Positions 16,160-63,698 of a stretch of 64,000 nt of DNA are shown here, piece by piece. Both the position numbers and the translations under genes were made by a program. Source of the stretch: Apostichopus japonicus (lineage: Eukaryota; Echinodermata; Holothuroidea; Aspidochirotida; Stichopodidae); the NCBI RefSeq assembly GCF_037975245.1, contig NC_092569.1:25867168-25931167 (forward strand), written 5' to 3'. The notes under the pieces are model-generated. The model saw nothing but the letters and a program-made list of their open reading frames with translations, had not been told where the DNA came from and searched no databases. Positions within the stretch are counted from its first letter, which is position 1, and the number at the start of each line of letters is the position of its first letter.

Positions 16160-19100
16160 GTTCCTATTACTTGTGTAAATGTTCAGCAATACAATATAGG
16201 AAACAACTTCGATTGATCAAATATGCTTGAATAAGTCCTCTCTCCTTTTTCATAAAATGAATCCGCTCAAGCTGAAAGTTGTGACGGTTTTCATAGCCAT
16301 AGACAAATTCACGCTCATTATAAGTTTCAGGGCGTGGTTATTAAGTATCCGTCTAAAAAAAGTTCTTATTGAATGACGTTTCGTTGCTTTTGCATCCAAT
16401 CAAATCACGATTAAAAGTGACATTGATTTGATTTCAAAAAGGTTTCTCTGCGTTCAGTTTAGGTAACTGGAATTTGCGTGACACAAAAGCACTACTATAT
16501 TGATAAAATCACAAACAACAATAATATTTTAAGCATGTTCAATATTCGTCAACATACGAAATTGTAAAGTTACTTAAGTATTACAGTTATGTTGAAAGTA
16601 ACGGCATTATTCAACATACTTCAAATGTGAGAGTCGTTGTAGCTAGCCTCAAACGTAAACAATGAGAGCTTGATTTTACAAGTCAGACTAAGGCTACACG
16701 TATAGTAAGCTAAATCGTATAAATGCTTTTAAGTTGGTTTAAGGTAAAATCGATAATATCGTTATTGCTTTCCACCGAACATAATAGCAGTCAGACTCTC
16801 AAATCTGATTGCTTTAATACTTTGGTGTGCCTTGTAAAGATCAAGTTGGATTACTTGGAGTTTTGACGCATCAAGTTGTTTTATATGTGTTGTTTTATAA
16901 AACAGTAAGGGTTGCCATGTGAAATGAGGATCACCAGTTGTAGAAGCTTTGTTATGTTGTGACAAGGATAAGACGAAATATCATTCCAAACTTTCCTTTC
17001 AATATTACGATCGATAAAATATATATTCAGAAACCATATGATCTTGTGAAGTTAATTCTTCTGTAGTTCAAAGGTACAAATGTGTTTGTTTCATATTAAA
17101 AAATACTGTGCTGCATTAAATACGGTATTTCTCTTAGTTTGTAAGAGTAAGCCGGCTACGTCAGACATTGGATTGTGAAGTTAAAAGATAGATTAAAGTA
17201 TATTTTATGTGAAATTCATTCCATTAATTTATTTTTGGAAAACATTTTCGAGCATTTATATTAAACTAAGAAATATGTTTGCGTTGGTTTCGGTAATTTT
17301 TTCAATACTGCATATTTCATGTTAACATTTTTTATTTTAGCTCGATTCAACAGGTGATCAATACATTTTTCGACTTCTTCTTTTTTTTTTGACATTAGAA
17401 TTATATACATATTAAGTTCATTCACAATGTAATGCGAGTAGAATAGAACTGTCAATTACATTTGCTGCTGATGAACAGATTATAATGGTTATTATATTGG
17501 TCTTGACCAATTGTAATCTTATGTTTATTAACGCGTTTCTCAAGAAATATGCCTGAACCCCAAAGACCACGGTTGTTTATGAACGTTAATTCATGTGTAC
17601 GAATTCGGTAATACAGAATATAAAAGTCAGTCACGTCAGTCTAGTCACGAATACTGTACCTTATATTGTATGAGCTTTGTACAGTTGTGCTATTATAATC
17701 TCACTCGAAATGGAAATATATGAAAATGACAATGTAAATACAATTATGGCGGATTAATATAAAGGAAACGTCATAATTCAGTATGGTGGAATCGATATTG
17801 TTTTGAGCGTTGACTTTTTATGAAACAACTTGCGAATTGATGTTGCTATAACAACATATTTGTTGTATTTATATTAATTTTCTATTTGGCTATACGCCAA
17901 AAGTCGTCGAGGGTTTTTTCTTTTATAAACAATACCAATTGTTCCTTAAAATCCAGGAACGCAAAGTAAAGCATTATATTTATAGTCACAGTGCCCTTCG
18001 TGTACTACACTGTTCACGCAGATTAAATCTTAGAAGCTCTCTACGTCAGTTATTGTTATTCGAAATGAAACGCATGGTCATCACATCCACGATCGTGCAT
18101 ATACGTGATGAGTGCGGCCGGTTAAAAATCAATCTTGCGTTCTTTTCGAGAGCCATTCCTACAGTACGTGCCTAGAATCTTGATGTTGCGCACTTGTGAC
18201 TAATGAAATCAGAAGAAATGATATGAACATTTCGCTAAAAGTAACTGAAGTAGCGCAAATTATCCATGGCGTTCACATTATCGTACTTTCATTTAGGAAG
18301 CGGAATCTCAAGGAGGCGCCCCCCCCCCCCACCACCCTTCTTCACAGGATGTGGTTCTGAATTTGGCACCAGTTAACTTAATTAAAATTAAACTATTTTG
18401 TGAACATATGTCCATAACTACTAAACAACTTGTATGAGTCACATGGATGTAAAAACAACATGGCTAGCAGCTTACCTACCGGGCTTAGCACCATATATGT
18501 GTGTGTCCGAAAACTCCTCGGCAATATGTCATTATCTCAAAAACACTCAATAGTATCTTTAAACCCAGTGGAAAAGTTCTATTTTTGCATCTAGGGAGGG
18601 GGGGGGGGTTGAGCGGATGAGAATAAAGCATTTATATTTACTAATTTCACAACACAATGTTTGATCTACTTTTATGGTATACACGAGCCATTAAGAGCCT
18701 GATGGGCCTAGCGCGCTGAGTCAGTCACTAAACCTGAAGTGTGGTGGGGAAATGCGATATTGTTTCCCCCATCCTTGGGAAAGCGGGGACGTGTCTCCCT
18801 GCAACACCCTCCCCCACCACCCCCCCCCCTCTCGTGATGACGCCCTTGCGTTTATGATACATTCTAATGTACAAATCATGTAATACTATCCGTGTACTGT
18901 ACAGGTTGTGTTTCACGAGGCAAGATGTTTTTCCCATTTATCTTCATAGTAAAAGCATTTTTCTATTCAATAATACTGTAACTAAACTACCCTAGTATCT
19001 TTGAATTCAAAGCTATATGTGGCGTTGTATATACTGTCGCAAAGATAGTGAATTTCTTTCATTCGTTATGCAAAATATGGGTCTTTGGCTTATCTTTAGT

Positions 19101-19703
19101 CCATAACTTGGATCGTGCTTGACGAAGTTTTATATTCATTGACATACGGGACAAAAACACAGCGATGTACAAAACTTGAACCAGCGTAACGTTAACGTTT
19201 ACTTTGTAAAACCGTCTTTAGTGTTCCTCTTCTTTTGCCGGTCTTATAACTAGCAGTCTTTGAGCAGAGCATTTTGCCTATTTCTTTACGCTGTGTCTGA
19301 AAACGTATGCTATCTTCATTAATAGAAAACCTCCCTGGTTCACATGAGTTGCACAATTATTTAGTGTAAAATGTGTGTACAAGCACTACATGATTGTGAT
19401 TTGACCTAAGGTCGCGGAAAACTCTTGATTTCTGATTAACAGATTTGTCTAAGCTTGTAAAATTGCAATTCTTACAGAGGATTCCTAGTCCTATGACGTA
19501 GTAGCAACCCCGCACCTGGTCTTTTGTTCTCAGCGCCGAGCTCTCCGGTCTCCGGAAGTCTTGTGACAGCTGTCCAGTGGCGGAGTTCTTTGAAGCATCA
19601 ATTTCTCACGCGCTTGATCTTGTGCCAAATATTAGAGTCGCAACTGAAAGTTATTTTCATCTCCAGTTCTTGACACTACTTGACAATATATCATGATAAA
19701 ACA
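16160..19703. other. Intergenic, upstream of FREP1
   Basis: Must contain the FREP1 promoter and any 5' UTR exon, but no decisive core promoter was found; on the minus strand CTTATAATG near 16318-16326 is a weak TATA-like candidate. Short open frames at 16762-16965, 17261-17634 (minus) and 17939-18175 (plus) are not recognised. G/C homopolymers lie at about 18317-18330, 18596-18609 and 18818-18830. Confidence 0.45.
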
Positions 19704-21800
19704 CAGGGGCGTATCCAGGATTTTCCAATAGGGGGCGTCAGGCATGAGTGATCGCCGTCCTGGGGGATGGGTCTAAGGGGAGGGGGTGGAAAATTTTTGC
19801 TTTCGAAGAAGGGCTGAAATGCAAAATGGTGTCATATGCATGGGCGGCGATCCGTACTTCCGAGTGGGGGGGGGGGATATGACCTTGCTGACTATATAAG
19901 CGTAGCGCCACCATGAGTTGGCGCGAAGCGTACAAGAAAATTTTGGGATTAACAAACCCTCTAGATGGCCGGAAACGGCACTTCCCGAGGTTTCCAAGCG
20001 GCATATACCCAACTTTAAAATAGGGATGTCATGTCCGAAATATCTCATAATCAGGATCCAAAATACCATTTTTTTTAATTTCGGGTGTTATTGTAATATT
20101 GTGACGAGCCCGGCTCCTCCGATAGTAATACTATATCGGGACTCGCGATAGAAAGGTACTGGGGTTATCTTGATGCCGTATTTATGCTTCTTCAGGAGAT
20201 GTCTCGAACGGGAGAAAACAATGAGTTCACAGAAAAACAATTTGACGAGATAGGATTTGATTAATGATTCGGTATAATTTCTTCTCTGTCGATTCTCTTT
20301 ACAAATAAAACTAAATTACAATGATTTGACTTGACTTGACTCCGTCAATTAAACAATTAGGAGGAGTGATGAAATGGTAACGAAGCAATGACGAAGCGAC
20401 GAACTGATGACGGAGTCACGAACTTATGACGGAGTGATAAATTTGCGACGGAGTGAAGAATTGCGACAACATGCCGCCTTTTATACCATACTTCTATAAA
20501 ATCCCTCTGCGCACAATCAGTAGGCAGCCAATAACCTGACCATCCTGTATTAACTTAACGATATAAAAATAAGTGCGCTGGCACTGATCTGCCCTGATTG
20601 GGTGGGAGTTTAGAAGTCCATCCCCTTTCTATGGAAACTTCCATACCACGTGAGAGAACCTTCTCGAATGTTCCACAGACATAATGGAATCTATTTTGGG
20701 AAAAGGCCCTGTACCAAGATTCAATAAGGTAGTTAAAACTTCTCGTGGGAAAACTGAATCCATGAACTAGATAAATATATAAGGGGCCCGTAAGGTGTCT
20801 CGATGGAGTTTTTCGGTAACATCAAAGAGGCAGTATTACTATTTCATAACATTATTTTGGGAAAATTGCCCCTGTCAATCTTGTTTCAGGCGCAACGTTA
20901 GAATGTTCGAGAGCTCTTTTATATTATTCGATGAAGAAAATGGCCTCATTCAGGCTACTATAGGCCTATACACATGCAATACACAATTACACATAGTTAC
21001 ATTCCTAGGTACCGATTGCTAGGGCATCCAGGTGAAACGTGTATTAAGCATTACCCTGGTAACATGAGATTCTCAGCTGTTCGAGGGAACATGTACGTGT
21101 GTAGGCCTACTATAGGGCCTATATGAATACTATGAGGGTGCATATATGTACTATATCAATACCGTGGGCGCAATAATACATTTTGTTGTTACAGGGCCAA
21201 TGAAGCCTACAGTCAACTATTCTTGCTTCATAAAGACGCTTCATTTGAAAAATTCGCACTGCGTTTATGGTAGGCGAGAAATGAAGCTAAAAATGAGCCG
21301 TACATTAACGATGATGCATAAATGTAGGCATGAAAATATTCTTATCCCTGGCATTTGGTGGGGTGGATATGGTGTATTACATCCCCTCCACCCATTTTCA
21401 TGGGGGGATATATCCCCCCTTCCCCCCCCCCCATGATCGCCGCCCATGGCCATATGTGATCCATTTTTCGACCTTAATAATAAGCAACGTTTCCAGTAAA
21501 TATGCACACAAAATGCACAATTTAGTATGGCTGGCATGTCACTTAGTGTTTATAGTGATAATACAAACACAATTACCATCTATGTTTCTAAAACTATTAT
21601 GCCGCCGAACTTCGCCAGAACCTTTTTTTGGCAAACAAAAAATAAAGCATACGGGAGGGGGGGGGGGGTTGAGCGATCACCGACATCTCACTTAAAGGTC
21701 GTCATCAATTTTTTTTTTTTTTTTGCTAAACTTTTTTTTTTGGTGACGGCCAATAGGGGGCGCGCGCCTGTTGCACCCCCCCCCCCTGGATACGCCCCTG
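19704..21800. mobile_element. Transposon A: non-autonomous DNA transposon, TIR CAGGGGCGTATCCAGG
   Basis: The left end CAGGGGCGTATCCAGG and the right end CCTGGATACGCCCCTG are perfect 16-bp inverted repeats. AAACA flanks both ends (19699-19703 and 21801-21805) as a 5-bp target duplication. Subterminal sequence is also inverted: GGGCGGCGATC near the left end and GATCGCCGCCC near the right. There is no transposase open frame. A block with AGCGCCACCATGAGTTGGCG followed by CGAAGCGTACAAG (19903-19937) is shared with transposon B and with 62198-62453. CAGGGGC termini resemble hAT, but 5 bp is short for canonical hAT duplications. The middle (about 20100-21300) may contain a nested insertion. Confidence 0.8.
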
Positions 21801-23856
21801 AAACAGCTAGTATACGCTACGTTATTTTATATCATTTTATGACCAAATTTGCTACTTTTCTAATTTGCTAATAATCATCGTGTTTAACTGTTCATAGATA
21901 TATTGTAAAATTCTTAAATTATATGTTTCATGAATCTCACGAATTGCTAGCTATGTAGTATTGTACTGATGGGGTTTACACTAAGTTAGTTATCATTTGG
22001 TGTCATTAGATGATAAGAATTTTCAAGTTATTAATATTAAAATATTGCTATGAAACTATTCATGTACTTTTGTAACGAAAATGAGCATCGCGCTGCTGTA
22101 AATAACTCTATTTCTGTCAGTCAACAATAAGAATCACCATAGTAAGCTACATTAAATTAACGCGACCATAGTTTTTTTTTCAAAATCAATCGACATTATT
22201 TTAATGTTGACCCATAATATTCATGCAGACATGCAGAGGACCATACCTAGTAAACCATTTAAAGGAAGGGGTGGAATTGTGAGGACATCACAGTGTTTGG
22301 TAATACTATATTTAATTGCAAAACACTTTCACTTTGTTGGCGTGTGTAGTTAAATAAGGTGCACACCCCAAGCAGTGTGGTATAGGTCGTATGTCGTAAA
22401 CCATTGTCCTTTTCGACTGTGTATGGGGTCGGGGATTTGTTCAGCTTTCCCCATCCACATCAGAGACAGAATATTATAAAGAAAAATTCGTGAAATGGAC
22501 TACAGTTTATAAATATAGAACAACTAATGATGCACGGAGCACTAAATTTCCTAATAATTCATCTTTCTTTTAATACACAACGTAATGTTTATGCTTCCGA
22601 GTATAACAACTGAGATCCAGTATGCATTTTCTAGCATAGTTGAGAAGCTAGAGCACGACAATAATGAGATAATCAAACCGTACACAAAAATCAAACATTA
22701 CAGCGTACACACACATCTTACTACATAATAGTGGACCATTTAATGTGTGTGGACTGTCTTTCCAATTTGTCAAAACTGAAATCAAAATTGCAGCACATAT
22801 GGAACCATTATTACATTGAAACATCATGAAATCATATCGGATGGCGTCAGTGACTGTTTAAGATATAATTATGAGCAGTATCCGCGACATCACCCAGTAA
22901 GCCGAGAGGAATGTAAATAGTTTTCTTAGCCTGCAGTCACTGTCAGAACAAAATATTCACTATAAATCATGTATGTCGATGATCGAAATAATTACTTACC
23001 TTTCATTAAGATGAAGAGTATATTTTATTACAGTCAAATCTGAGGATAGTTGTATTATTTTCAAAGCTTATACAATGTTTTTTTTTAATTGGACAGAAAA
23101 ACAAAAGTGTAGTCAATGTACGGCATTAAGATATATCCTTTAGTTTATGCAAGAGAAAAATTTGATAATAACTTTATTTACCATCAGAAAATCTTACATT
23201 TACCTCCAACCAGCCAACATAAGCTCCACCTAATCATACATATTTGAAAAACGTCAGCACTTTGTATCATACGATTAGTAAAAATTGAAACAGAATCAAT
23301 CGAAAGAACATTATCAGAAAAGGAAATCACGTCATATACTCTTAAATATTTTAAGCTTATATCTTTGCAATAATTATCCGCTAATGTCAATTAAAAACCA
23401 TAAAGGGTAGGTGTGATACTTTAGACAACGCTTGTAAAAATTCCATGTTTGACAGATAAAATGCTACATGAGATGGTATGGGACACTCCATGTAGCATTA
23501 TCCCAAAACTCCTGTGATTGGAAAACTTTTAGGCTACGGTGCATTGTATTTTTTGCCCCACGATAAAGTATACTAATTCGTGCGTTCAATATCTTCAACC
23601 GTACAACACATCACAAGTTGGCAGTACCTGTCTCCAGGTGATAATTCTTTTTACCACCGAAGGGTATAGGTAACATCAAACAATGCAGAAAATGGACTAA
23701 GTTCTCCTCTCATTCATGTTTTCTTTTTGTTACATGACCTTCTTCCTCTACCGTAAATAATTACTTTGGTTCTTTCCCAAATCTTGTTTGTAGATTCACA
23801 GAATTCAGTCAGTTGGCATTAGAGGAACAACACGAGAAGAACACATAAACCTCAGA
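21801..23856. other. Intergenic, upstream of FREP2
   Basis: AT-rich; the FREP2 promoter and 5' UTR should lie at its right end. No TATA box or further exon could be assigned. An open frame on the minus strand at 23184-23390 is unrecognised. Confidence 0.45.
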
Positions 23857-23931
23857 ATGGAATCCCGAAGTTTGAAGCAGACGCTTGCAATATTCTTCTG
23901 GATGGCAACTTTTCTATTTTTGCAGTCAACG
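23857..23931 (+). CDS. FREP2 exon 1, signal peptide
   Basis: 75 bases from ATG (23857-23859) to ACG|GTAAGT, phase 0. It encodes MESRSLKQTLAIFFWMATFL and then FLQST. The hydrophobic core continues into exon 2 (FAQQDD), giving a normal-looking cleavage site. Confidence 0.8.
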
Positions 23932-26900
23932 GTAAGTCCTGGATCTTTGAAATCTTCTTTAATGTCAATTAATATCATGTGGGAGATAGACGATTTTACA
24001 AATTGATAAGTGTGATATATATATTGATTAACAGGGTATAATTTAAGAAAACAATTATCATGTGATCAAACTTAGACGAATGCTGACTGAGGTCTAACGT
24101 TAATCGTTCACAGAATTACCATATTAATTGAATTACTCAGACTCTTATTGATTCTTAGAACTGTTTGTTTAAAAGTCACATATGATGATATCTTGCAAAG
24201 AAATTGAGGTCTTGTGGATGACAAACTATTGCTTATTGTCATATCAAGAATGAACATTTTCCTGATATCTCCATATATAAATAACATTGTATTTGTGTAT
24301 AGAGTTAACGGAGTATTAGGAAACGCAAGCTATTATTTCAATAGAAACAAACACTGTACAATAAATTATAAAACCTTATAATACAATTTAGTTTAATAGA
24401 CGAAATTAACTTTCAGGTGAACAATATCAACAGATTTTGTTTAAAAAAAAATATGCTAACGTTTAACTTGCTATCGCGTGACAATTGATTTAGTTTTGTG
24501 AAACATTATCCGAATTATTATACAAATTAAATTGATCTTTGGACAATACTTTGCCAAACCTGATGAGTATTTCCCAAATCAATTCAGTAATTTTTCAAAC
24601 TTACCTCCATTTGCTTACCTCTCTCGTGACTTCAAATATGATCTAAAATATATGAATTACATGCAAAGCATATAAGAAATGTTAAAATTTTTGAGATTTT
24701 GGATCATTGATTAATATAAAATCTGAATAATTCACCTTACGTACTGCATTATTGTGGAATTTTCGTGCCGAAACGTTGAAACAAAAACAAATAAAAAAGG
24801 AACTCGAAAATCTGCTTCAAGTGTACATAAACCTTGCAATTCATTTGAAAATTTGAAAATATATACACATCTTTACGAATCAGAATTCAATATACATTAG
24901 ATGTCTTTAAATTTACGTCTTTATAAAATGAACCTTCAAATGAATACAGTTGATGTTGTTTTCGTTTTCATTCAATATATGTATACCATTAATATCGCTA
25001 CATTAATTAACACTATTATGATACTCATAGGTAGACGGAGTAAAGTTTAATAATTAAAGTCGTCGTCTTCGATCAAAGTAATAGTCAAGACTCTTTTCAA
25101 TTCGAACTAAATTGCTCGAATCTTGACAACAAATTTCTCGGCATTATTGTGAAAGAGAATCCCGTAACTCACGAATCCCGGATATATGTAAACAATATTC
25201 ACAAACCGAATAATTTCTCAATTTATTATTAGGTGTTATATTTATTAACTAATTCTATTTGTTTATTAGTTCATTTTTCTGAGATTTATAGATCTATAGG
25301 ACTCATGCCGGCCCTTAATTTTTTGATATGAAATATTTCTTTTCCATTCTTTCTTCTAACATGTTAGCGAAAATTTGATTTATAACAGTTTTGCCTTCCA
25401 ATACTAATCAAAATTACGATAGCCATACTCAAATGAAATTGTTTGTTGGCTCTTTTTTAATTCAATAATTTTTGTTAGGTCTTAATTCAATAATTTTTGT
25501 TAGGTCTTAATTCAATAATTTTTGTTTTTAAATGTTACAAGATTTTCTGTCACAACTGAAATAAACTTAACGAGCGTACTTCTTCAATCCAAGAAGAACT
25601 TCATTAAACGGTGACACAAACCCAAACTTCTACTATACGCATATGTGATACAAATCTGTATGATGCAGCTAACACTAAGAAACAAACGTTTTACGTTTTG
25701 GAGATATCCTTCTTAAAAGTTGTGTCAACATATTTTCAGGGTACAATGTTAACATCGTTGAAACTGAAAACACGTCACATTAGGCCTACATAAATAGCAC
25801 ATTCGTAAGGAGCTTCAATATGCTAGTTTCAGTATGTCAAAAAACATCTACATTTTGGAAAATAAGTATTGTAACAAATAAATAAAACAATTAGAGGACA
25901 AGTAGCTGAATGATATCATATTAAAACTTATGCTAGTGTTCAACGTTATCTGTGAAGAAGTATTAGACATATGATAACTTACAAATTGAGTTACAAATTG
26001 GGTTTTTGTTATTTGTTTGAGGAAGCTGTTCATTACAATTATGTATATCTCTTTCTAAACCAACGATGGTGGTTGGTATTGTTTCTCTTTAAATGTCAAT
26101 ATCAATTGTTCTAGTCTTCAGTCAATGAATGAAAATTAGACTTATGATAATTTAAAACTTGACTTATTTACAATGTCTATCTCTTATTAGACCAATGGTG
26201 GTTGTTGGTTTTTGTTTCTCTTGTAGTAATGTCAACTATTACTTAGTAAAACGGATTACATATATCAAAGTCACTTCAAAATCACAAGTATGACATATAT
26301 TATTATCACAGAATAATACGCTCTCGGTATTTTATAGGTTAAATATTCATTATCATCTTTTTAATTTTTCGTTTAAAGAGCGTTGAAAGTTGTACCATAT
26401 AAAGGTTTTCTTTTTTCAATTTTTTGTTTATGTTTCCTTTGTTTTGCATTCTTTTCTACAGTTTTTTGTGCTCCTCGTTATTTTAAAAGATTACGGTACG
26501 TTTACTGAAACTAACAAAACGTGCATAATTGTAATCGAAATTGAATTTGAAATTGATTTTTATCAGTCTATCAATTATTTTACTGCTAATTTTTCATTTT
26601 TTTTTTTTTTTTTATTCATTTTGTTTGCACATACACATTCTTCAGAGACTTAGATTTGACATAAAACAGAAGATTATAATCGTACAGATTAAACTATTTT
26701 GATTTAAAATTGTCCAGGAAAGTGGTGTTGTTTCATTTGTTACAACTAATTTGGCTATCTCCATGTTTTTTTAGTTTGCCCAACAAGACGACACCTATGA
26801 GACCACCAAACAACATTCAGGTAAGAAGCAACCTTAATTAATCTTAATAGAAAATCTTAAGTGAAGGTTTCAATAAACCTGATAGCAACCGAGCTCCACC

Positions 26901-27871
26901 AACTATATCAACGATTCATCTTGGAAACTTGCTATTTTATTTCTTATATAAATTGCCAGTGTCAGAAATGAATTCACTAACAAACATGAAAATAATTACT
27001 GATTTTGTTTATTCACAGTAAAATTTAAGAGAAACCATGTATTATAAATTGCAGATGAAAATAGTTTCTTCAATATTCAGCTATTTGTTGTACTTAAAGT
27101 TTATCCCCTATAATTTATCAATTTAAGAAATAAAACATCAAAACAATGTTTCAATGCTTTCAAAGCTTTAAAATCTGGTATAATTAATACAAATATGTTT
27201 TTCGCTAGAGAGAGAAATCCAAATGCAACATGAAAAGAAATTTTTGAAAAATGTTGGCAAGTTACTGGATTTTTAATAAGCTTTTATTTTGTGTTGAACA
27301 AAGCATCTACTCTTCTTGGGGGAAAAATCGTTAACTCAATTTTACAAAGTATCTTGACTACTTATGAACCATAAAACTCAGCTGCACGTATTGTAACTCA
27401 TTCTCATAAGCATTGTCATATCCACCCTGTCTTAAAAAACTTGCACTGGCTACCTGTAAAATATCGTATTATGTATAAAATTCTCCTTATTGTTTATAAA
27501 TCACTTAAAGGACATGGTCCAATGTATATTTCTGACTTATTACATATTTATGTCCCCTCTCGTAATCTAAGATCTAGCTCTCATGTTTTATTATCTGAAA
27601 TGAAGTCCAAACATTTTTGGGGGATAGGTCATTTATTGTTTCTGCCCCTCGCTTATGGAACCAACTTCCCTTAAAAATCAGAAAAACATCTACTCTCTCT
27701 AACTTTAAGAAGAGCATAAAATCCCACTTAATGAGAAAAGCTTTCATATGATCTTATACCATTAAGTTTTTCTTCTGTCATTGTTTTGTAGTTTTCTGTA
27801 TTATTTGTATCATTTCTCATTGTCATTTGCGCCATGAACATTCTTTGAGTGGTGTGTGCGCATTATAAGTC

Positions 27872-27909
<38 letters not shown>

Positions 27910-30900
27910 AATCTTATTTTTCTTTTTCAAGATTCTTCGTTTTTCTTCTACCAACAAACTGAACTTCCCAGAGATTGTAAGGACGTTCGAGACCAATGTG
28001 ATTCAAATAATTCCAGTGGTATTTATTTGATTAAACCTGAGACTTGTGCAGAACCATTCGAAGTACTTTGTGACAATTCTAAAGATGCTGGAGGTTGGAC
28101 GGTATGTAATAAATTATGATGCAAAGTAACTTGTTTTCTACTTTAACTTTATATTTGTGATGTATCTTAGCGTAGTATCGTCATATTCTTAAGTACAGTG
28201 TGGAATACTTTTATTCACCTCCGACACAAACCAACCACTGTCTGCTGTAAAGATAGTTATAAGCTGGTAGAATAACCATCCAAAAAGTTGAACAAAACTA
28301 ACTACTAGCCAAAGTATCTAACAAAACGGTCGTTTCGTAAAAGATTGTAATTAAGTTTGGTTTTCTCTTTTAGGTTGCTTGAAATACTAATCTTCTTTCG
28401 ATCAGTATTTCATTATATGAATTTTAAGAAGCCTGAGCACTAAAATGTGCAGGAAAGCTATATGATATGCAAATATATTTGAGAAGAATAAAAATGCTTG
28501 AAAATGAAAGACGTTATTATGAATTTAATTTACAGGTCATTCAACGTCGATTTGATAATGAATCGGTGGAGTTTAGTCGTGACTGGGAGAGCTACAAAAA
28601 GGGCTTCGGCTTCTTCTCTCACGAATTCTACCTTGGCAATGAGAAATTAACCTACTTGACAAATCAAAACAAATACGAACTGATGTTTGAGATAACGACG
28701 GTCAATGGTTCCACATTCAAAATGTCCTACATGAATTTCCGTGTCGGGGATGAGTTTAGCAACTACAAGTTAGTCAGTCTTGAAAGGAACTCCGGAACGA
28801 TATTCCAAGTCACTCGTAAGTACAACGTGTTATAGTATCATATTATCTTTCTGAGTAAGGATTGATTATCCTAGCTTAGGAAAATTAAATTTCACATATA
28901 TGAAACCAAAAAATTAGAACCATGGAATTTTTGGTGTATATATTTTAAATACATTTTTCATGCGTATCAGAAATATAATACTCAGGCAGACAACGACCAG
29001 GTAGGAAAGCCCGCAAGAGCTTATGGATTACAACATTCTCGTCGGGTGGCTTCCAATTCAAAATTGTAACTCAAATTTGGAATCTTTTCAATTTAGAAAG
29101 TCAATATCAGATGGTAAAACCGTAGATTTGTCTTGGATGAAACACGACCGGCCGGGGCTCGAGTCCCGAACCTCACGATTACTAAGCAGCATTGCCTTAA
29201 CATGGCACTGCCTTAATACACTCAGCCAGCACCGGTACATAAATATGCGACAGATTCGACTTTAAAGGGCTGTGAGAAGGGGGTATGATAGAACTTAGAC
29301 GCATTTGGTACCACTTTTTCTTGATACCATTTTTTTCATCTCAGTAACGGTCGCTTTGTTAATTATTTCATTCAATTGCCTACTTCCAGATTTCACTGAT
29401 TGCCAAGATGCGTTTACCTCTGGTTTTACTGATAATGGGATCTACAAGATAAAGCCGAACGACTGGTCCGGATCAGCTTTCAATGTTTATAGTAATATGA
29501 CAGATGGAGGAGGTTGGACTGTAAGTATTTAACAGTGACTGTTATACTTAAGTGGTCAAAAAACAGTCGTTGTTGCTGTTTTCAATTTTTATAGACTTTG
29601 GGATGATGCATACATTGTCCATTGTCAGTAAATTACTTCTCGTTTGTCATTTCACTTTTAACAATAATATGCCCTCTACTTATTTCAGATCTGTTAAACG
29701 GGAAATGTAGTTTCTTCGTCATCAGGTTTCAATTTCACAGCAGGGATATAACCTTTCTGGAAGTTTTAGCTAGAAACTATTATTTTGCCTTGTAAAGCTA
29801 GCTTTCAGTTAGTCAAAACAAATGTCAATGCGAGGAAGTTCATATAACTGCCCCCGCTTACATCGGTAGGTAGGTAGTAGTAGAAACGTCCACACAATAT
29901 TTCAACAAACAATACAACTGATTTTCATCAATACTATCACTGCAAAGATCTTATTCTTACTTGCAGCTTACTGTTCATTTTTCTTTCACAATGTTAAACC
30001 TGTTGTCACTCTTACTGTGTTAGACTGAGACCATCGTCAAAACTGTATCATACTCACTGCCATTATGAATACTTCTTGAACTTACCAGGTCTTCCAGCGA
30101 CGTGTTGATGGAAGTGTTGATTTCTATCGCGACTGGGACAGCTATAAAGAAGGCTTTGGAAATTTAAGCTCCGAATTTTGGCTTGGAAACGAGCAGTTGC
30201 ATTACTTAACGAAACAAAACAGATATGAAATTAGAATTGATGTGGTGAACAGAGATGGCGCTCCATACTATGCCAAGTTTGATAATTTCCGCACAAATGA
30301 TGAGACGGACAACTATCGCTTATCTCAACTTGGAACCTACAGCGGAACGGCTGGTGTGTATACATCTGATTATTATTTCGCTATCCTTTACAAATATATT
30401 TCTAGCCATTGATTTATATTAAAACAATAATTTAACATGTTTTCATGATGAGTTTCACGTTTGCTTGATTGTCCCGAAAAAGATAAAAGCATAATTTAAA
30501 AATTCAAACAATTGAAACAATTGAAAGTGAAAATAGCTTAAAACACCCGATTCACACAGAGGTTACAGTTACTACTGTTAATCTTATAGGTTAGTACCAA
30601 AGTAAAGAAATGGAACATGCTGATAAATCGGTAGTATGTGCAACCAGGATTACAGTTAGAACCGAAGAATTGCAGGCAACCTTCTAACCATACTTGATGC
30701 ATTCGTTGGGTTCACGCATATCCTCAATTCTTACTGTAATCCTAACAACACATGGTACCAATTTATCAGCACGGTCCAGTTTTCACTGTGGTATAATACT
30801 TTACATGTAGTAACTGTGTGTATTTGTTGCTTAAAATTATAATTTTAACACTGAATTGTTGTTAATACATAGTATGTATTATGTAAGTGGTATATCCTTT

Positions 30901-32330
30901 GAGGGATATTTCGTTTAATTAACAAGGCAATAGAAAACAAATTAATAGCAAACATCATCAACATGAAAAGGTATGTTACTTTACACCGAAACAACAAACC
31001 AATGCAACTAATCTACAACATAAACCTGACTAATTTCCAAATAATTCCTCATATCCTGTATTGTCATAAGCACCGCAGCAAATTGTGGAAATCTTTGTTT
31101 GCTTGAAATAAGTGGTTATAATTGCCTCAACCCACACTAGTTTTACTAAGTATATTCTTCATTAAAATCGAAAAGAATGATTAGAATGTACATTTATTCT
31201 TAAATGAAACTTTGGAAATTAGCATAGCATTTTTTAGCTTTACCGGCATACGAACCAGGGGCTCATGGTTACAGGAATTGAATCCCTTTCCAACCGAAGC
31301 TTTCTTAAGTTTGTTCATTTAAATTGTTTATAATTCTCCTGTAAGTTTCTGTTTTCGTGGACTTGTGATAACAAAATGGAATTATACAATCATTACGACA
31401 GTGGGCAAATCATACACATTTTCTTAAACCTATCAAGTTTTCACACGGTGATTCTGGTTAATATAAGATATTGGCCTCTTTTCTCGGGGTAATACTGAAT
31501 AAGTAGATTTGCTGAGAAGAAATCAATAACATGAAGTAGATTTCTACATTATTCTTTCAAAATTGATACCAAATATTTAGTTAAGAAAAGTTATACTTAC
31601 CTGAATATATCTTTGTTACACTTGAAATCATTTAAATTATTTCAATAGAACCATGAGCTAAATTGAAAAAGAGTATAACACTTGGAATAAACATAACAGT
31701 CTAGGGGAACCTTATAGAAGGTATTAACCTCTGTCCTCGTGGTAATAATATTCAATGTTTTAATAAGATTGATCAGAAGAAATAGAACATCAATTAGATG
31801 TCAATTGATTCCACTATAGCTAATAGAGATTACAAAAGTGCAATTACAAATTTGCAAAAGATCAAGCAATGTTTCTGTAATGTTATACGGCTCTCAACCC
31901 AAACATTTAAGATATGTTGGTGGATATTTGGAGATAGTTCAAAAGCTTAAAGGCAAACTGACTTGATATTTGACAATGTCTAGATTTTTTTTTTGATGGG
32001 AACCTAAACGGTCTCGTTCACATTTATCACTTATTGCTCTCAATTCTGTTTATTTTGACAGACGAGAGAAGCAACCCTGATGGCAAGTTTCTGCGTTATC
32101 ACCTCAACCACCAGTTCAGTACGTACGACCGTGACAACGATGCTTATAGCAGTAACTGTGCCGTCAGTTATCGCGGTGCCTGGTGGTACGACAATTGCTA
32201 TTATTCCAATTTCAATGGTGACTACCACGCAGCGTCTGGCAGTTATAGTAGTCTTTATATGTATTATATACCAGGATACGATTACAACATGAAATTCACG
32301 GAAATGAAAATTCGTCCATTCAGAGCTTAG
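23857..32330 (+). CDS. FREP2: fibrinogen-related gene with two domain cassettes and one shared C-terminal exon
   Basis: Seven exons on the plus strand: 23857-23931, 26775-26820, 27932-28101 (A), 28536-28815 (B), 29390-29520 (A'), 30089-30353 (B') and 32062-32330 (C). Exons 1-2 encode a leader (MESRSLKQTLAIFFWMATFL, cleavage probably near TFAQ) and a short acidic linker. A and A' encode the N-terminal fibrinogen subdomain, B and B' the middle, C the calcium loop (DRDNDAYSSNC) and WWYDNC signature. A+B (450 bases) and A'+B' (396 bases) are each phase 1-1. Using all exons gives 411 aa (one and two-thirds domains); only A+B gives 279 aa; only A'+B' gives 261 aa. Both single-cassette forms would have a complete fibrinogen domain. 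Which form is made cannot be told from sequence. The function is probably a secreted pattern-recognition lectin. There is no EGF module, unlike FREP1. Confidence 0.85.
25457..25527. repeat. 25-bp tandem repeat, ~2.8 copies
   Basis: TTAATTCAATAATTTTTGTT followed by AGGTC repeats at 25457, 25482 and 25507 in the first large intron of FREP2. Confidence 0.9.
26775..26820 (+). CDS. FREP2 exon 2, short linker
   Basis: 46 bases, phase 0 in and 1 out, encoding FAQQDDTYETTKQHS. The acceptor is TTTTTTTAG and the donor TCAG|GTAAGA. Its phase-1 exit matches the entry of exons A, A' and C. Confidence 0.75.
27360..27907 (+). mobile_element. LINE (CR1/L2-type) 3' fragment with (TTA)n tail
   Basis: The translation includes ARIVTHSHKHCH, LHWLPVKYRIMYKILLIVYK and PSRNLRSSSHVLL, then after a frameshift near 27615 GDRSFIVSAPRLWNQLPLKI and LSNFKKSIKSHLMRKAF. 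These are standard C-terminal reverse-transcriptase landmarks of CR1/L2-type LINEs. The fragment is 5'-truncated and ends in a TTA repeat (27872-27907), as these elements do. It is inactive. The tail ends 24 bases before the exon A acceptor of FREP2. Confidence 0.85.
27932..28101 (+). CDS. FREP2 exon A, fibrinogen N-terminal subdomain (cassette 1)
   Basis: 170 bases, phase 1 in and 0 out. It encodes LPRDCKDVRDQCDSNNSSGI, YLIKPETCAEPFEVLCDN and DAGGWT. It has the two family Cys plus two extra ones (DQCD, ETCA) absent from cassette 2. Acceptor TTTTTCAAG, donor ACG|GTATGT. Confidence 0.85.
28536..28815 (+). CDS. FREP2 exon B, fibrinogen middle block (cassette 1)
   Basis: 280 bases, phase 0 in and 1 out. 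It encodes VIQRRFDNESVEFSRDWESY, then EFYLGNEKLTYLTNQNKYEL to NYKLVSLERNSGTIFQVT. It runs five codons past the point where exons B' and FREP1 exon 5 stop (SGTAG). Acceptor TTTACAG, donor ACTC|GTAAGT. Confidence 0.85.
29146..29240 (-). repeat. tRNA-derived SINE-like fragment
   Basis: On the minus strand, GGCTGAGTGTATTAAGGC resembles a pol III A box, and GGTTCGGGACTCGAGCCCC (29172-29154) resembles a B box. Spacing is roughly that of a tRNA, but the cloverleaf does not close, so I call it a SINE relic and not a tRNA gene. It lies in the intron between FREP2 exons B and A'. Confidence 0.5.
29390..29520 (+). CDS. FREP2 exon A', fibrinogen N-terminal subdomain (cassette 2)
   Basis: 131 bases, phase 1 in and 0 out. 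It encodes FTDCQDAFTSGFTDNGIYKI and FNVYSNMTDGGGWT. It is closer to FREP1 exon 4 than to exon A. The second conserved Cys (VFC/VYC before NMTDGG) is Ser here (codon AGT), leaving the Cys of TDCQD without its usual partner. Acceptor CTTCCAG, donor ACT|GTAAGT. Confidence 0.85.
30089..30353 (+). CDS. FREP2 exon B', fibrinogen middle block (cassette 2)
   Basis: 265 bases, phase 0 in and 1 out, the same length as FREP1 exon 5. It encodes VFQRRVDGSVDFYRDWDSYK through YRLSQLGTYSGTAG. Acceptor CTTACCAG, donor GCTG|GTGTGT. Confidence 0.88.
30545..30830. mobile_element. Fold-back element, copy 2
   Basis: Related to 5968-6233 and likewise nearly palindromic: GGATTACAGTTAGAACCGAA pairs with TCAATTCTTACTGTAATCC, and the outer arms share GTTACAGTTACTACTG / GTAGTAACTGTG. 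It lies in the last intron of FREP2 and has no coding capacity. Confidence 0.75.
32062..32330 (+). CDS. FREP2 exon C, C-terminal fibrinogen subdomain and stop
   Basis: 269 bases, phase 1 in. It encodes DERSNPDGKFLRYHLNHQFS, the calcium loop DRDNDAYSSNC, the signature GAWWYDNCYYSNFNG and the terminus FTEMKIRPFRA, TAG at 32328-32330. It is rich in Tyr and Ser between the signature and the terminus. Acceptor TTTTGACAG. Confidence 0.9.
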
Positions 32331-32563
32331 ATAGCATTCAGATGCTTCTCCCACACGAAACGAACTGTATACAGAAATCCTTTCCGATGAATATGCACGT
32401 GTTTTTGGATGAAACCTTTTGAATATATTCGTCTAAGCTATTGCAGTAATGTTAACGGATTTAGTCATTCAATTATGTAGATTATTCTAGTGATTAAATC
32501 ACAGTGCTATAGTGTATCTATAAGGTACTATTGACAAAGAAACTAATTAACTTGTGACGTTGA

Positions 32564-32569
32564 AATAAA
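32564..32569 (+). terminator. FREP2 polyadenylation signal
   Basis: AATAAA 234 bases after the stop codon, the first canonical signal downstream of FREP2. Confidence 0.65.
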
Positions 32570-35500
32570 GTGACAGAATTCCTGATGGATTGAAATCTTT
32601 GTTGAAGTACTTTATTGGGTTTTGTATTTGTTTTAGAGGGCCAAGATTCCCCAACAACATTATCTCTAACATTTTGGTCATTGTTTCAGATGCTTCAAGC
32701 AACTCTCCAGAAACAATTGTGCTTCATTAGTATGTCATCTTAAAGCGGCTATTGCTTTCAGTTTTACATTTTCACAAACTACATTAATGAAGTAATGCAC
32801 ATTCGCTCGTTACATATAATGGTACGCGCACGGTAGTGAATAACCATATAAAAAAGGCCTACCGGGGTTAAAAATAAGGAACTAAATTTAAAACTAATTT
32901 GAAAATTTATTCCGTTTACCAATAAAGCATTTAAAGAGACATGTATCAACCAAAATGACAAGCAAAACATGAAGTTAAACTAATACGGTTAGATAAAACA
33001 ATCTGAAGTAGCTTTTTGACTCTTTTTTCGGTCCGTTTTAATGTTACAATACGAATAGGTAGACAATACAGTTTAACATGTTATCCACCAAACTAGACCG
33101 ACAACTTCTCTCTTGCTTTTTTGAAACTGGAGATTCATTAATTACATCCCTAACATTTAGCGAGCTAGGATTTTTTTTAATATATTCACAGTTCGTCGGA
33201 TTTTTATTCTCCGTAATTTATTACTTAAATATTTATATATCTTGTGCCAAAAATAACAGTTTTGAATATTTAAGTTATCATCATGGATCCATAGGAAAGA
33301 CACGCTAAGACAGAAGAATACGGAATTCCCCGTCTTGCGCAACCTACGGCATCGTCTTATAGGTACGATATACTAATACTATGTATGTTAAGCCACAAGG
33401 ATGCCCTTCTCGCTTCCCCCTTCCTTCCGTCAAAGGAAAAAAAGAAGAAACATGTCGTTTTGTTCGCCTCTCATGATGAAATTTGTTAATCACCTGAATC
33501 ATTTTCCTTCTTATGAATATACACAACAATTGGGGTTGATAATACCATGAGGTCTGACTGTTGGTAAATAAATACAAAATGCCTAAATTCAAATTGTTTA
33601 CAAAACACACTTCAGCACCGTGACAATGTTTAAGAACTCAATGTTGCGCTTTCGAAACAGTTGTACCACGAGCATACTCAGTTCATATGTGAATAACTCT
33701 TATCGATAACACGATTAATCGCTTATGATCACTATTGTGTCCATGAATTTTCTGGTCTTGCATATCTAAATAAAATCCGTCTTTATTAAATAGGGCATTC
33801 TTCTCATTCTTCATCGACCATTATTCATCGCTGCTTCATACCACAGATTTTAAATTGTTTATAGAAAACGATAAAAGTGGACCACATATCCACCCCGTTC
33901 CCAATTAGTGACCCCATTACTCATCCTCCACCCTACCCCCAACCTTCCTTCAATCTTGAAGGCCAATAAAATATCAATAAAACCGTGAAATAATATAGCA
34001 CAGGGAAGAATTAAAATAAAGCTATTCGTAATATATCTCTTAAATAAAATTAAACAGCATGTGTTTAAATTACTCAGGCTTCAGTGCCCATTTATCACAA
34101 CATGAATTCAAATACAAAGTAACTTGTATGATATCATACTCCTGTGGGAAGACTAGACAGATAAAACTGAAATTTATATTGATAAGGGTATTCACTCTTC
34201 TAACTATTCATCTAATAGCTCTGAAACTTGTAATTAGCTCTTCAGAAGCTTCAATATGATTTATTACAGGTGATTATAATATCACGTATCATATACATGT
34301 TTGTATGTATAATGACAAACAGTGAAGAATCAAGCACTGATGGTAATTGCATTGTTTTGTAATATCGTGATTACGCGCACAGCCAACTGTTTCAGTGTCC
34401 TTCCTGCCAAATATGTGTACAAGGTACATTTTTTTTCAACAAACACTTGTCTACTTCAGGAAGCGGGGACAATCAGTGCCAATATACATTAAAGAGTAAG
34501 CGTAGCTTTTGTTGGCGATCTACTGAGAAAACTATAAACATTTGTTTAATTTTGCTACATTTACAGTAATTATTTAAATTTTTAAACTGATTTGGTATTA
34601 ATCGCAAAAGCACAATTACACAAAAAATAAATATCTAATTTGCAAAATACAATATCAATTAATGTTACACCATTCATGCATGATAGGCGTGTGCCCTATA
34701 GCTAGTATCACTTATCTGGAACCATTCTAGATACTATATGTCTGAGACACTAGTTCAAAGGTAGGTTGTCTCCGTATATTCAAACAAGGGGAGATTCCAC
34801 CCTCAAAATTTCACTTTTCTTATATGATAGGAAACAACTACACACTATTTTAACTACGAATTCTGTCCTCGAATTCAAATTTCCCCAGACATTTTCAACA
34901 TTGTATGCTACAACCAAACTTTTACCACAGGTTAGAAAAAACTATGTCATTCTCTCTATTTTGTGTTTCCTCACACAAGTGTAGAAGTCTGTCTAAGAAT
35001 ACCCCGGCATTTGGTGTTTGCTCCATGCCAGCCTACAATCACTATTCCTGTTTTGGCGTAGGAAACTATCACTATATAAGGCAAAGTTACGACAGTGTAT
35101 CTAGCTGATATTTACCAAAACATCTTTGAAGACCTGACAGAAATGTGAACATCTCAAGTTTCTCAAGAAACTATACTCCAACTGTACTGCTTACGTAAGC
35201 AGAGAAAGCTCTATGAACTTTTCAGTGTGGAGTGTGTTAGACCCGTCCTTAAATTCTGATAATGGAGAAAGTACTAGTTGTTCACACTTTAATGTACAGT
35301 TTTCCAATTTGCTCTGTAAATCAGCTTTGAGTGTGTTCAACCTTTCAACAATGACACTCTCGTTAACTTTCAGCGTACTAATTTTGCAAGGATCAAGTTC
35401 TCTGGAAATCTTTTCTAATGTGCTACAGGTTCTTCACTGAAGGTACTTTTTTCCTCAGTTGTTCTAGCAATCAGATGACTGCACATAATATTGTGAGGAA

Positions 35501-36189
35501 ATAAGGAATCAAAATGCCTTCTGACTTACGGATTTCAGTCTCGAATAACTCATCTTCAATGTTCCTGATTCTCGGATATGTCTTTGTTTACGATCTTGTC
35601 GATATAATAGCATATAGTATTACACGCGAATCCCTGCTTCTTTAATTGGAGATGAGGAAAAGCATGCTGAAATGGCAGACATTGTCCAATCTTAAGTTGA
35701 TTGGATGTTTGAGCGACATACGTCATTTCACAATACCTGAGCTTTATAAGGCTGTTTTAATAATAATAATAATAGCGCGATTGATAGTCAATACGTCGGA
35801 TTAGTTTAAGCTGGTACAAAGAGCATGTAGCTTCGAATGTTTGATAGTCGAGAGAATTTATTGAAGTATGTTTAAATCAAGTTATTCCTTTCTCTGTGTT
35901 GCTGAAATCCCTACAAGGAAGGGAAAAATGAAGATTTATAAAGCTTCGATAATCATAAGATTGGTTTCAAATCTTGCATCTGTTATGCTATCGACAGGTA
36001 AGCATCTTTTGGAATCAAAAAAGTGACTGTGTAATTGAATAATGTTACAATATTTTCATACTTTAGCCTTATCTTATTTAGCTGCATGTTCAATTACAAA
36101 AAAAAAATGATCTGCAGCTATTATGTTTTTTCATATCTGAAATGAAATATATGCTTCTCTGTAACTTATTGCGACTTAGATTAATAACA
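32570..36189. other. Intergenic; possible degraded coding remnant at 35200-35420 (minus)
   Basis: Mostly AT-rich with no recognised gene. On the minus strand about 35418-35200 is an open stretch of ~73 codons (includes TLEKISRELDPCKISTLKVN and ERLNTLKADLQSKLENC), predicted coiled coil by its heptad-like pattern. The sequence to its left on the same strand (35105-34740) has coding-like pieces broken by stops. This could be a decayed gene, but no family was identified. Confidence 0.3.
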
Positions 36190-44500: not shown

Positions 44501-47500
44501 GAAACTAACATTTTCCCGTCTAATATTGGTGCCGCATGTGATATAAGGTAGCCTTACAGTACTACCAACCAATTTGCCCCATATTCAGTAGATTTGTTGT
44601 ATGTGATAACATCATTCAAAATCTGCTGATATATTTCGAAAAGCTCTTTTTGTTTCTAAGATATACACATTTGAAGTTTTGATAAATCTGAGAAACTCAT
44701 GCATTCAATATGTGCAAACTTTTACGTGGATTGCTGTGCTCATCAAAATGTCTTATATTAGCCCTTAATAAGTTTCCCTACTAACAAGCCCACATATATC
44801 ATTCGAATAATGTGATGTTCTTTTTTTCAAAGAAGACAAAATATTTTTAAAAATCACTTTAGGCCACAAACCCATGTGTTGAATTGTGTTCAGTGGCTTT
44901 GAAACCACGGTTGCAAAAACGGAATGAATAACATAACATCAAATGAGGCAGTCACTCCCATTACATCATCAATGTGCATAATGAGCTAATGACTATGCAT
45001 CAATAAAAATAGATTTAAGAAAGGACTTGTAAAATGGTCAACTTTTGATGGGAGTTGCAGCTACTTAAATCATTTCTAATATGCATTAGAATGATTAGGA
45101 CACTGTTGTATAAAGGTGTCCTTAGACCTATACTAGGCCGAACTATAGCATCGATCCGGGGCGGTGGGGGGTGGTATTAGCAGGGTAGACTAATTACTAG
45201 ATCAAACATAACAAAAGTCAGCATATGATACTTTACCTTATCCATTTTTCCTTCTTTTGGAAGGAGCTGAAAGGTTGGTCCATAGTTTGCCATGTGGAAG
45301 TCCAGATCGGTTTCATTGATATAGTCGTATAACCGGATTTGTTTGCCCCGTCGGAAGTTGATGTGACCATGATCGCTGACCATTATTACATTGAGAATAT
45401 CGGTTAAACCGTTTTCTTCTATTAAGTCGAATAACTTTTGAACATTGGAATCAATGATATCCAAAGAAGCCTTAACAGCAGGAGAATCGGTACCGAAAGT
45501 ATGCGATATTGTGTCCGGTTTATCGGCATAAAGAAGAACGAGATCAAAATCATCTTCGATTAACCATTCCATCGCCAAATCGATCCGATCAGAGAGAGGC
45601 ATGTTCCGCCACCACCAAGAGTCACTCGGTATGATCTTGTCCGGCACGATACCCTTGACCTCTTTCATACCGCCAGGGTACATGATGTTCCCGACAGACA
45701 AACCGTTAAGCTTAGCTGTTACCCATATCGGTTCGGCACCGGTATCCCACCATTCGGAAACATTGAGTGTTGCTGAGTAACTTGTCGTCTTGGCTCCGGT
45801 TTCTGGATCGTAGTAGAGGTTATGGACTACTCCGTGACATTCCGGATGCAGACCTTTTGAAATAGCAACATTAATATTCATTATATTTTGTTAAATATTT
45901 GCATATATGGTTTTAACATTTTAAGGGTACATTCAGTATGTTTCAGCGCGGTGGTTAATCTTACATGCTGAATTTTCATAGCAAGTAGCCTTTTTCAGTC
46001 ACGGCGCACTTAAACACACAGTGGACAATGTGTATAAGTCCTCACATGGGCACTATTGTCTAAGCCGGGGACAGGACGTATCAGTTCTCAACATTGGTAT
46101 ACTACCATCCATACAGGGAACAAAAAGTGCACGAACACGCCCGAGGCAATGATTGAACACCAGGGACAAACAGGGGACAGAAAATGTAAGCACCTATTCT
46201 TCAATGTTGTCTTCACCGGAAGGGGGGGGGGGTGCGTGTGTAAGCTTTCAAACGAGTGAACGCTATCCATACTAGGGTAGGAGTATAAATACTCACTATT
46301 GACACTGCTGTACATTATGTGGACATGAAATGTGTAAGTACTCGCCATTGGCGATGATCTGCATACAGAGGACAGAGGTTGTAAGTCCTCACAAGAGGCA
46401 ATGATGTCCAAACTAGGGACACAGAGACTGTGTAATTTACTCAGGTCAGACAAAGGTACAGAGAGTGAATGCATGCACTCACTTTTCGAAATGATGTATA
46501 TACGGGGTACCGCGAGGGGTCAGTACACTTACCTGTAGCGATGGTGTACATGCTGGGTGCAGAAAGTGACACAAATGCTCCATCCATCCATTCTGCTCGC
46601 ACTCCATTCATCTCGACGTTGTGAAAGGCAGGAAGCTCATATCCGAATTGATCATAGCGCAGTCCGTCAATTAGAAAGAGGAGCACCTTAGGCTGTTAGA
46701 AGAAACAAACATAAAACAAAACATTACAATCATGAAAAAAATATAGAATCAACTACATGTAGATAAGATATGCTATTTCATCAGAAAGCCTCATAAGGCA
46801 GTTATGAAGTAATCAATTTTCGGAGGTCCACAAATGACGCGAGTTTACGTATGAATTAGCGTTGCCTTTACCTCCTTATAAAACTTTGTGTGGCTAGGGA
46901 GACGATCATCAGGCTTCCCGCCACCTTCCAACACCCCCCCCCCCCCTCCCCCATCCTCCCGTTCATCCATTCCATTCGGTTTCGATCATAACTGATCAAG
47001 CTGCATGTACAAGCAAGCTCTCATATCAGGGGAAGTGGTTCACATGTTGAAGTTATGGACTGCCGGCCTGGAAGAGGGGTGTAAGAAAAGGGGAGTTGCA
47101 CTTTTTTTTGCAGAAACATTTGTATCAGTAAGGGTGCTTAAATGCAAAAAAAAGGTGCAATCGTTTCTAACTTGCAAAGAACATTTAACTTCACGACATT
47201 TCAGTATACCGGATAGACCTACAAATAGTTTCTTATTTTTAATGAACATGATCAAGCTTTTAAAGATCAATTTTATTTACGCAACAAATATATGATATTC
47301 TAAATCATGCTGGGGATGAGAAGGGGTGGGGTGAACTCCCCTGTGACTTTTCGTTAGCTTTTTATTTTTTATTGTTTAGTATATATTTTTTTAGTATGTG
47401 CCTTCTTTTTGGTCACTCTGTAAACTCTACAAAAATCGAATGATGCATTCATTATGTCTCCCAATTTATTATTTGCAAAACAAAATGAAAAGATTGTTAA

Positions 47501-54595: not shown

Positions 54596-63698
<9,103 letters not shown>

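What the first reader, a model, noticed from the sequence alone, without database searches (positions are those of the whole stretch)
27932..32330. FREP2 has two frame-compatible fibrinogen cassettes sharing one C-terminal exon
Exons A+B (27932-28101, 28536-28815; 450 bases) and A'+B' (29390-29520, 30089-30353; 396 bases) are both phase 1-1, and the leader exon exits and exon C enters in phase 1. Any of A+B+C, A'+B'+C or A+B+A'+B'+C is in frame. The single-cassette forms each give a complete fibrinogen domain; the long form gives a domain without its ligand-binding third followed by a whole one. The two cassettes are well diverged (A has two extra Cys, A' has lost one). This would be a compact way to switch the N-terminal two-thirds of a lectin domain on a constant ligand-binding part. 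Decay of a separate gene that lost its C exon is the plain alternative.
Basis: partly seen in the sequence, partly recalled or inferred. Interest (0 to 1): 0.75.

Follow-up and report, generated by a model that had tools for sequence, protein, structure and literature searches.

The report
Fibrinogen lectin gene with doubled domain
An animal gene (probably sea cucumber) for a secreted fibrinogen-like lectin carries an extra two-thirds of a fibrinogen domain in front of a whole one, and sister genes keep the same layout under selection, so it is a working design and probably a fixed protein architecture, not a decaying relic or a splice switch.

Summary
In detail: exons A, B, A', B', C are intact and A+B+C, A'+B'+C and A+B+A'+B'+C are all open. 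The own genome (671.58 Mb, 35 contigs; size fits Apostichopus japonicus) shows that A-B-A'-B'-C is the standing layout of a FREP subfamily on contig C9. All 13 related loci read have A' and B' after A-B on the same strand (one B' has a nonsense codon); by coordinates, 53 of the 57 best A-B-type hits have an A' or B' hit downstream. A and B are as constrained as A' and B' (omega 0.15, 0.13 against 0.11, 0.12), which refutes decay. The switch reading is not supported: in 6 of the 13 loci exon A' also carries an EGF-like segment, so the gene reads as modules in series; B exons lacking their own C form one clade with residues of their own; exon C, the supposed constant part, has the highest dN in 8 of 10 gene pairs. 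Best explanation: one linear secreted protein, a P-less fibrinogen module plus a complete domain whose ligand-binding P part varies between genes, from an old fusion of two FREP genes. No RNA evidence was available, so exon skipping cannot be excluded.

The parts
23857..23931 (+). candidate signal-peptide exon, MESRSLKQTLAIFFWMATFLFLQST, phase 0 donor gtaagt
   Evidence: top of three rows (two start codons) in a hydrophobicity plus donor scan of 18001-26770; no convincing homologue upstream of relatives; tentative
26775..26820 (+). leader exon FAQQDDTYETTKQHS(G), exits in phase 1
   Evidence: weak match AQPENNHETTKQTTG (E 0.08) about 490 nt upstream of exon A in the 23.60 and 23.83 Mb genes
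27932..28101 (+). exon A: aromatic-rich N-terminal stretch plus fibrinogen A subdomain, 4 Cys
   Evidence: omega 0.15 against the 23.60 Mb relative
28536..28815 (+). exon B: fibrinogen B subdomain; donor lies 12 nt downstream of the place of the B' donor
   Evidence: omega 0.13; member of the clade of B exons without their own C
29390..29520 (+). exon A': fibrinogen A subdomain of the second module; second Cys of the usual pair lost (VYS)
   Evidence: omega 0.11; no EGF-like segment found here, unlike 6 of the 13 related loci read
30089..30353 (+). exon B': fibrinogen B subdomain of the second module
   Evidence: omega 0.12
32062..32330 (+). exon C: P subdomain with DRDND calcium-type motif (recalled) and C-terminal strand, stop TAG
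   Evidence: dN 0.292 against 0.063-0.130 for the other exons, 23.60 Mb relative

Best explanation
FREP2 belongs to a gene subfamily with a fixed two-module layout. One transcript joins signal peptide, leader, A, B, A', B' and C in order. The secreted protein has an N-terminal fibrinogen module without its P subdomain and C-terminal beta strand, then a complete fibrinogen domain. The second module binds ligand through the P subdomain of exon C, which diversifies between paralogues in the germline. The P-less module is a conserved scaffold, most likely for self-association or for packing against the second module. The layout probably arose by fusion of two neighbouring FREP genes and loss of the first C exon. 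Shown: exon anatomy, conserved order, selection on both modules, one clade of P-less B exons, fast change of C. Inferred: inclusion of all five exons in one RNA, ligand binding, the role of the P-less module, and the fusion route.
For: Order A-B-A'-B'-C on one strand is complete and open in 11 of 13 related loci read and in the window; in the 12th (6.25 Mb) the fetched stretch ends before C, and in the 13th (22.563 Mb) B' has a nonsense codon. By coordinates 52 of the 57 best A-B-type B hits have a B'-type hit within 12 kb downstream on the same strand, and a 53rd has an EGF-A' exon. Omega for A, B, A', B' is 0.15, 0.13, 0.11, 0.12, and alignable DNA against the 23.60 and 23.83 Mb genes is exonic, one repeat-like match apart. 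In 6 of the 13 loci exon A' carries an EGF-like segment upstream of its fibrinogen part, and one search lists 33 such EGF-A' hits on C9 at 58-98% identity; the one-cassette gene FREP1 has the same kind of exon. All 30 distinct P-less B exons lie on one side of a branch with support 99/94. At position 62 they have Ala in 1 of 30, against 17 of 18 P-bearing B exons, and at 63 Lys in 0 of 30 against 16 of 18. All 24 distinct P-less A exons have an extra Cys that the P-bearing sister lacks.
Against: No transcript or protein was examined. All phases also allow A-B or A'-B' to be skipped. No spliced genomic copy settles it: among 111 and 99 scored candidates I saw no clear multi-exon match of this subfamily, but a few rows run past an exon edge (for example C9:23172097, 11015475, 8905409) and were not checked. 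The nearest relative of the P-less B exons is a one-cassette gene with its own C, so an A-B-like pair can join a C. The window's A' has lost one Cys, leaving its partner unpaired. Four of the 57 best A-B-type hits have no partner found, and 48 of all 115 rows used were unpaired. Some close pairs have high omega in single exons on few changes (6.25-6.266 B 1.24; 23.60-23.83 A 0.74 and A' 0.72; 25.33-25.42 A 0.74). R49 and D51 are kept in the two most divergent P-less B exons, and exons were put in the P-less or P-bearing class by best-matching query, so class residues are partly built in.
Confidence: 0.7

Rival explanations
1. Mutually exclusive cassettes: A-B-C or A'-B'-C is made, switching the N-terminal two-thirds of the domain on one C exon.
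For: All forms are in frame and A+B+C scores as a whole domain. A one-cassette sister gene shows that an A-B-like pair can sit with a C.
Against: B and the A' hit lie about 340-1550 nt apart in the loci read, too far for steric exclusion; no gene-specific intron stretch is conserved between the nearest relatives. In 6 of 13 loci the second cassette brings an EGF-like segment, so the two are not equivalent alternatives. P-less B exons have lost residues kept in P-bearing B exons. C, which would be the constant part, has the highest dN in 8 of 10 pairs.
Confidence: 0.1
2. Optional module: the full chain and a short form without A-B (leader to A') are both made, so the P-less module is added or left out.
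For: Leader exit and A' entry are both phase 1; one-cassette genes such as FREP1 show that EGF-A-B-C alone is a standing gene layout.
Against: A and B are as constrained as A' and B', and no conserved intron element was seen. No direct evidence either way.
Confidence: 0.15
3. Decay: A-B is the remnant of a separate FREP gene that lost its C exon.
For: No C-like hit lies between B and A' in the window. As an ancient origin this fits.
Against: Omega 0.13-0.15; no stop in any of the 28 distinct A or 31 distinct B sequences read; in simulation a neutral A-B stays intact at 0.1 substitutions per site with probability 0.0665 without indels and 0.0015 with them, while dS to the 23.60 Mb gene is 0.6-1.0 in A, B, A', B'.
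Confidence: 0.02

Closest known systems
FREP gene expansion of Apostichopus japonicus (PMC5638244, passages read)
   Same: FREPs are its most expanded family, clustered and tandem-duplicated, and up-regulated in visceral regeneration.
   Different: The passages read describe no P-less module, no doubled domain and no exon layout; its supplements were not read.
Anopheles FREPs with more than one FBG domain (PMC1242226, passages read)
   Same: Some proteins carry two or three FBG domains, most of them not full.
   Different: Different phylum; no conserved A-B + EGF + A'-B'-C gene subfamily is described in the passages read.
Biomphalaria FREPs (PMC7588048, passages read)
   Same: Large family of fibrinogen-domain proteins studied in defence.
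   Different: Built from IgSF domains plus an FBG domain; here the tentative gene model has a second, P-less FBG module and no room for IgSF.
Dscam mutually exclusive exons (PMC13428168, passages read)
   Same: Tandem homologous exons with matched phase.
   Different: Here each unit is a pair of exons, often with an EGF-like segment in the second, and no exclusive choice is shown.

Membership tests
Fibrinogen_C / FReD proteins | Fibrinogen C-terminal domain by profile | tested here: met
   A'+B'+C 225 bits over 4-220 of 221; A+B 119 bits over 2-124
Fibrinogen_C / FReD proteins | Complete A, B and P subdomains in each module | tested here: not met
   the first module stops after B; no C-like hit between 28815 and 29390; the second module is complete
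Molluscan FREP (IgSF + FBG) | IgSF domain upstream of FBG | tested here: inconclusive
   the tentative gene model has only 25 + 15 residues before exon A; no IgSF search was run
Mutually exclusive splicing (Dscam-like) | One and only one homologous exon per RNA | not testable with these tools
   no RNA data
Mutually exclusive splicing (Dscam-like) | Conserved intron pairing elements near the alternatives | tested here: not met
   blastn of window 20000-33500 against two relatives with about 80% A-B protein identity aligns exons and one repeat-like stretch at a non-corresponding place; absence is weak evidence
Processed or decaying pseudogene | Loss of frame or of purifying selection in A-B | tested here: not met
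   open frames and omega 0.13-0.15

The most novel reading that the evidence does not exclude
The P-less module is a re-engineered fibrinogen fold. [quoted passage not shown] P-less modules lack it, and among the exons read they alone carry an aromatic-rich stretch (FFFYQQ or a close variant) just before subdomain A, an extra Cys, and changed residues that I place on beta 4 and beta 5. That stretch, or the strand of a neighbouring chain, may fill the gap and so link FREP chains into oligomers that display a Tyr-rich, fast-changing P site.
Probability: 0.25. Interest if true: 0.65.

Novelty: new variant of a known kind. Interest (0 to 1): 0.45.

Why it matters
FREPs are in print the most expanded gene family of A. 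japonicus and are linked there to regeneration (PMC5638244, passages). A subfamily of dozens of genes that keeps a fibrinogen module without its ligand-binding third asks what that module does, and places the diversity of the family in exon C, not in a splice choice. Both points can be tested with RNA-seq and recombinant protein.

Tried and rejected
Decay of A-B: rejected by selection and conservation. Loss of the GTAG motif at the end of B as a sign that B never meets C: dropped, because the P-bearing sister gene at 23.600-23.602 Mb lacks it too. Parity of Cys counts as a sign of a linear chain: dropped, because by my reading it fits some subfamilies only. Suspected A-B-C genes at 22.77, 22.79, 22.88, 22.90 and 23.13 Mb: each proved to have a B' in between. 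Spliced genomic copies that would show the junctions: no clear case; a complete single-exon FReD on C22 (41-43% identity) is not a close copy, and rows that run past an exon edge were not checked. An EGF relic in the window's B-A' intron: none found. Papers: ten were read, each only as passages found by term, plus section 7 of PMC5928061; PMC3575912 is not held, and PMC3088710 was seen in a listing only. PMC13228809, PMC11349225, PMC12119288 and PMC2702171 added background only. Searches for doubled fibrinogen domains, splicing of FREPs or exclusive fibrinogen exons in print listed nothing that I judged closer than the Anopheles paper; most listed papers were seen as listings only.

Full report
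What was checked. A and A' exit in phase 0, so it is the A-B pair, not each exon, that is phase 1-1. Pfam gives A+B 119 bits over positions 2-124 of 221, A'+B'+C 225 bits, and A+B+C 195 bits. A tentative signal-peptide exon lies at 23857-23931.

Where it is. The tool places the window on contig C9 of an assembly of 671,581,487 bases in 35 contigs. A published Apostichopus japonicus assembly has 671.60 Mb in 34 scaffolds (PMC10344927, passages); the species is inferred from that likeness only. The Fibrinogen_C search gave 169 matches, most of those listed on C9; only 150 of 2730 candidates were scored, so counts are lower bounds.

The layout is a family trait. A+B searched in its own genome gave 150 matches from 150 scored candidates. 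Twelve regions holding 13 related loci were read. All 13 have A' and B' after A-B on the same strand. Eleven show all five exons open; in one (6.25 Mb) the fetched stretch ends before C; in one (22.563 Mb) all five exons are there (its A in locus L024) but B' has a nonsense codon. One of the eleven (22.408 Mb) has an extra B-A' pair. A more divergent gene on the minus strand at 11.074-11.078 Mb shows B, EGF-A', B', C, with the place of A outside the fetched stretch. By coordinates, 52 of the 57 best A-B-type B rows have a listed B'-type hit within 12 kb downstream, after a first count of 44 of 57 with a shorter list; one search adds an EGF-A' exon for a 53rd. Of 115 A-B-type rows typed into, 67 were paired and 48 were not. 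The other 35 of the 150 rows were left out: exon-A rows, rows on other contigs and lowest-scoring rows. The B' list was my selection. The 48 include four of the best 57 without any partner found; the rest were not resolved.

Selection. Against the 23.60 Mb relative, Nei-Gojobori dN, dS and omega are A 0.130, 0.839, 0.15; B 0.097, 0.744, 0.13; A' 0.063, 0.595, 0.11; B' 0.118, 0.981, 0.12; C has dN 0.292 with dS saturated. Alignable DNA between the two loci is exonic plus short edges, apart from one repeat-like match (window 30548-30803) at a non-corresponding place. Eleven pairs were computed. In the ten that include C, C has the highest dN of the five exons in 8; the exceptions are 23.60-23.83 (C dN 0) and window-11.005 (A, B and A' higher). 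The pairs share members and are not independent. A few single-exon omegas are high on few changes (6.25-6.266 B 1.24; 23.60-23.83 A 0.74 and A' 0.72; 25.33-25.42 A 0.74). A neutral A-B of this length would stay intact at 0.1 substitutions per site with probability 0.0665 counting stops and splice sites, and 0.0015 with indels at a tenth of the substitution rate (the rates are my assumption).

Modules in series. In 6 of the 13 loci (6.266, 11.005, 11.036, 11.058, 25.33, 25.42 Mb) the exon of A' begins with a Cys-rich segment. In a relative, Pfam gives that segment EGF_3 at 26.8 bits (cut-off 28.5) and TILa at 22 bits (cut-off 27), both below the curated cut-offs; in FREP1 it gives EGF_3 at 30 bits, above the cut-off, and TILa at 16.3. 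One search lists 33 hits on C9 that span this segment and A' at 58-98% identity, some of them in the 22-23 Mb cluster. FREP1 on the minus strand of the window has the same kind of exon; no A-B-like exon was found upstream of it in the window. The segment was not seen in the window gene or in 5 of the 13 loci (23.60, 23.83, 22.408 and two at 22.56-22.58 Mb). At 6.25 Mb it is cut short, and at 19.39 Mb a relic with an in-frame stop precedes possible nearer acceptors.

P-less B exons are a class of their own. A tree of 52 B sequences (88 columns; 17 of 49 inner branches drawn open) puts all 30 distinct P-less B exons on one side of a branch, support 99/94. Their sister, support 93/92, is the B exon of an intact one-cassette A-B-C gene at 23.600-23.602 Mb. 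P-less against P-bearing rows (30 and 18): position 51 Glu in 28 of 30 against Asp in 18 of 18; position 62 Ala in 1 of 30 against 17 of 18; position 63 Lys in 0 of 30 against 16 of 18; position 49 Arg in 2 of 30 against Arg or Lys in 18 of 18. The sister gene has the P-bearing residue at all four, though it shares Phe at position 25 with the P-less class. Exons were assigned to class by best-matching query, so this is not wholly independent of the class. All 24 distinct P-less A exons carry an extra Cys absent from the sister, and all begin with FFFYQQ or a close aromatic variant (read).

Structure. [quoted passage not shown] A-B without C therefore lacks a strand inside its sheet. That positions 49-51 lie on beta 4 and 62-63 on beta 5 is my own placement by sequence order.

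Exon C. C exons vary in length around the WWY..C loop and many are rich in Tyr: 14 to 19% in 12 of 17 C exons, 10% or less in the other 5, against 6-7% in three FReDs of solved structure.

Interpretation. The conserved order, equal selection on both modules, the EGF-like segment inside A' and the class-specific residues of P-less B point to one linear protein. RNA evidence was not available. Exclusive or optional use of A-B is in frame and cannot be excluded. The switch idea also needs C to be the constant part, and across the pairs compared it is mostly the least constant.

Noticed in passing
window 12654-13000, minus strand: The end of FREP1 exon A with its donor is repeated about 4.5 times in a 77-bp tandem array, giving several possible exon ends.
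   Followed up: no
C9:22409110-22414718 (L047): A relative with exons A-B-A'-B-A'-B'-C, an in-frame internal duplication of B-A'.
   Followed up: partly
C9:23602195-23600300, minus strand (L031): Intact one-cassette A-B-C gene whose B is sister to all P-less B exons.
   Followed up: yes
C exons of relatives, e.g. L039-L049: Many P subdomains are Tyr-rich (up to 19%) with length changes near the WWY..C loop; they look like a germline repertoire of binding sites.
   Followed up: partly
window 56824-59570: Minisatellite of 56 bp, 49 copies, 96% matches.
   Followed up: no
window 35928-35993: Signal-peptide-like frame with weak similarity (E 0.049) to the FREP1 signal exon, perhaps the start of another FREP gene.
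   Followed up: no
window 45177-45890 and 61373-61786, minus strand: Exons of a type I phosphodiesterase/nucleotide pyrophosphatase and of an aspartate/ornithine carbamoyltransferase.
   Followed up: partly
C9:22565192 and 23231034: Two relatives have a nonsense codon in B', so some copies are decaying.
   Followed up: no
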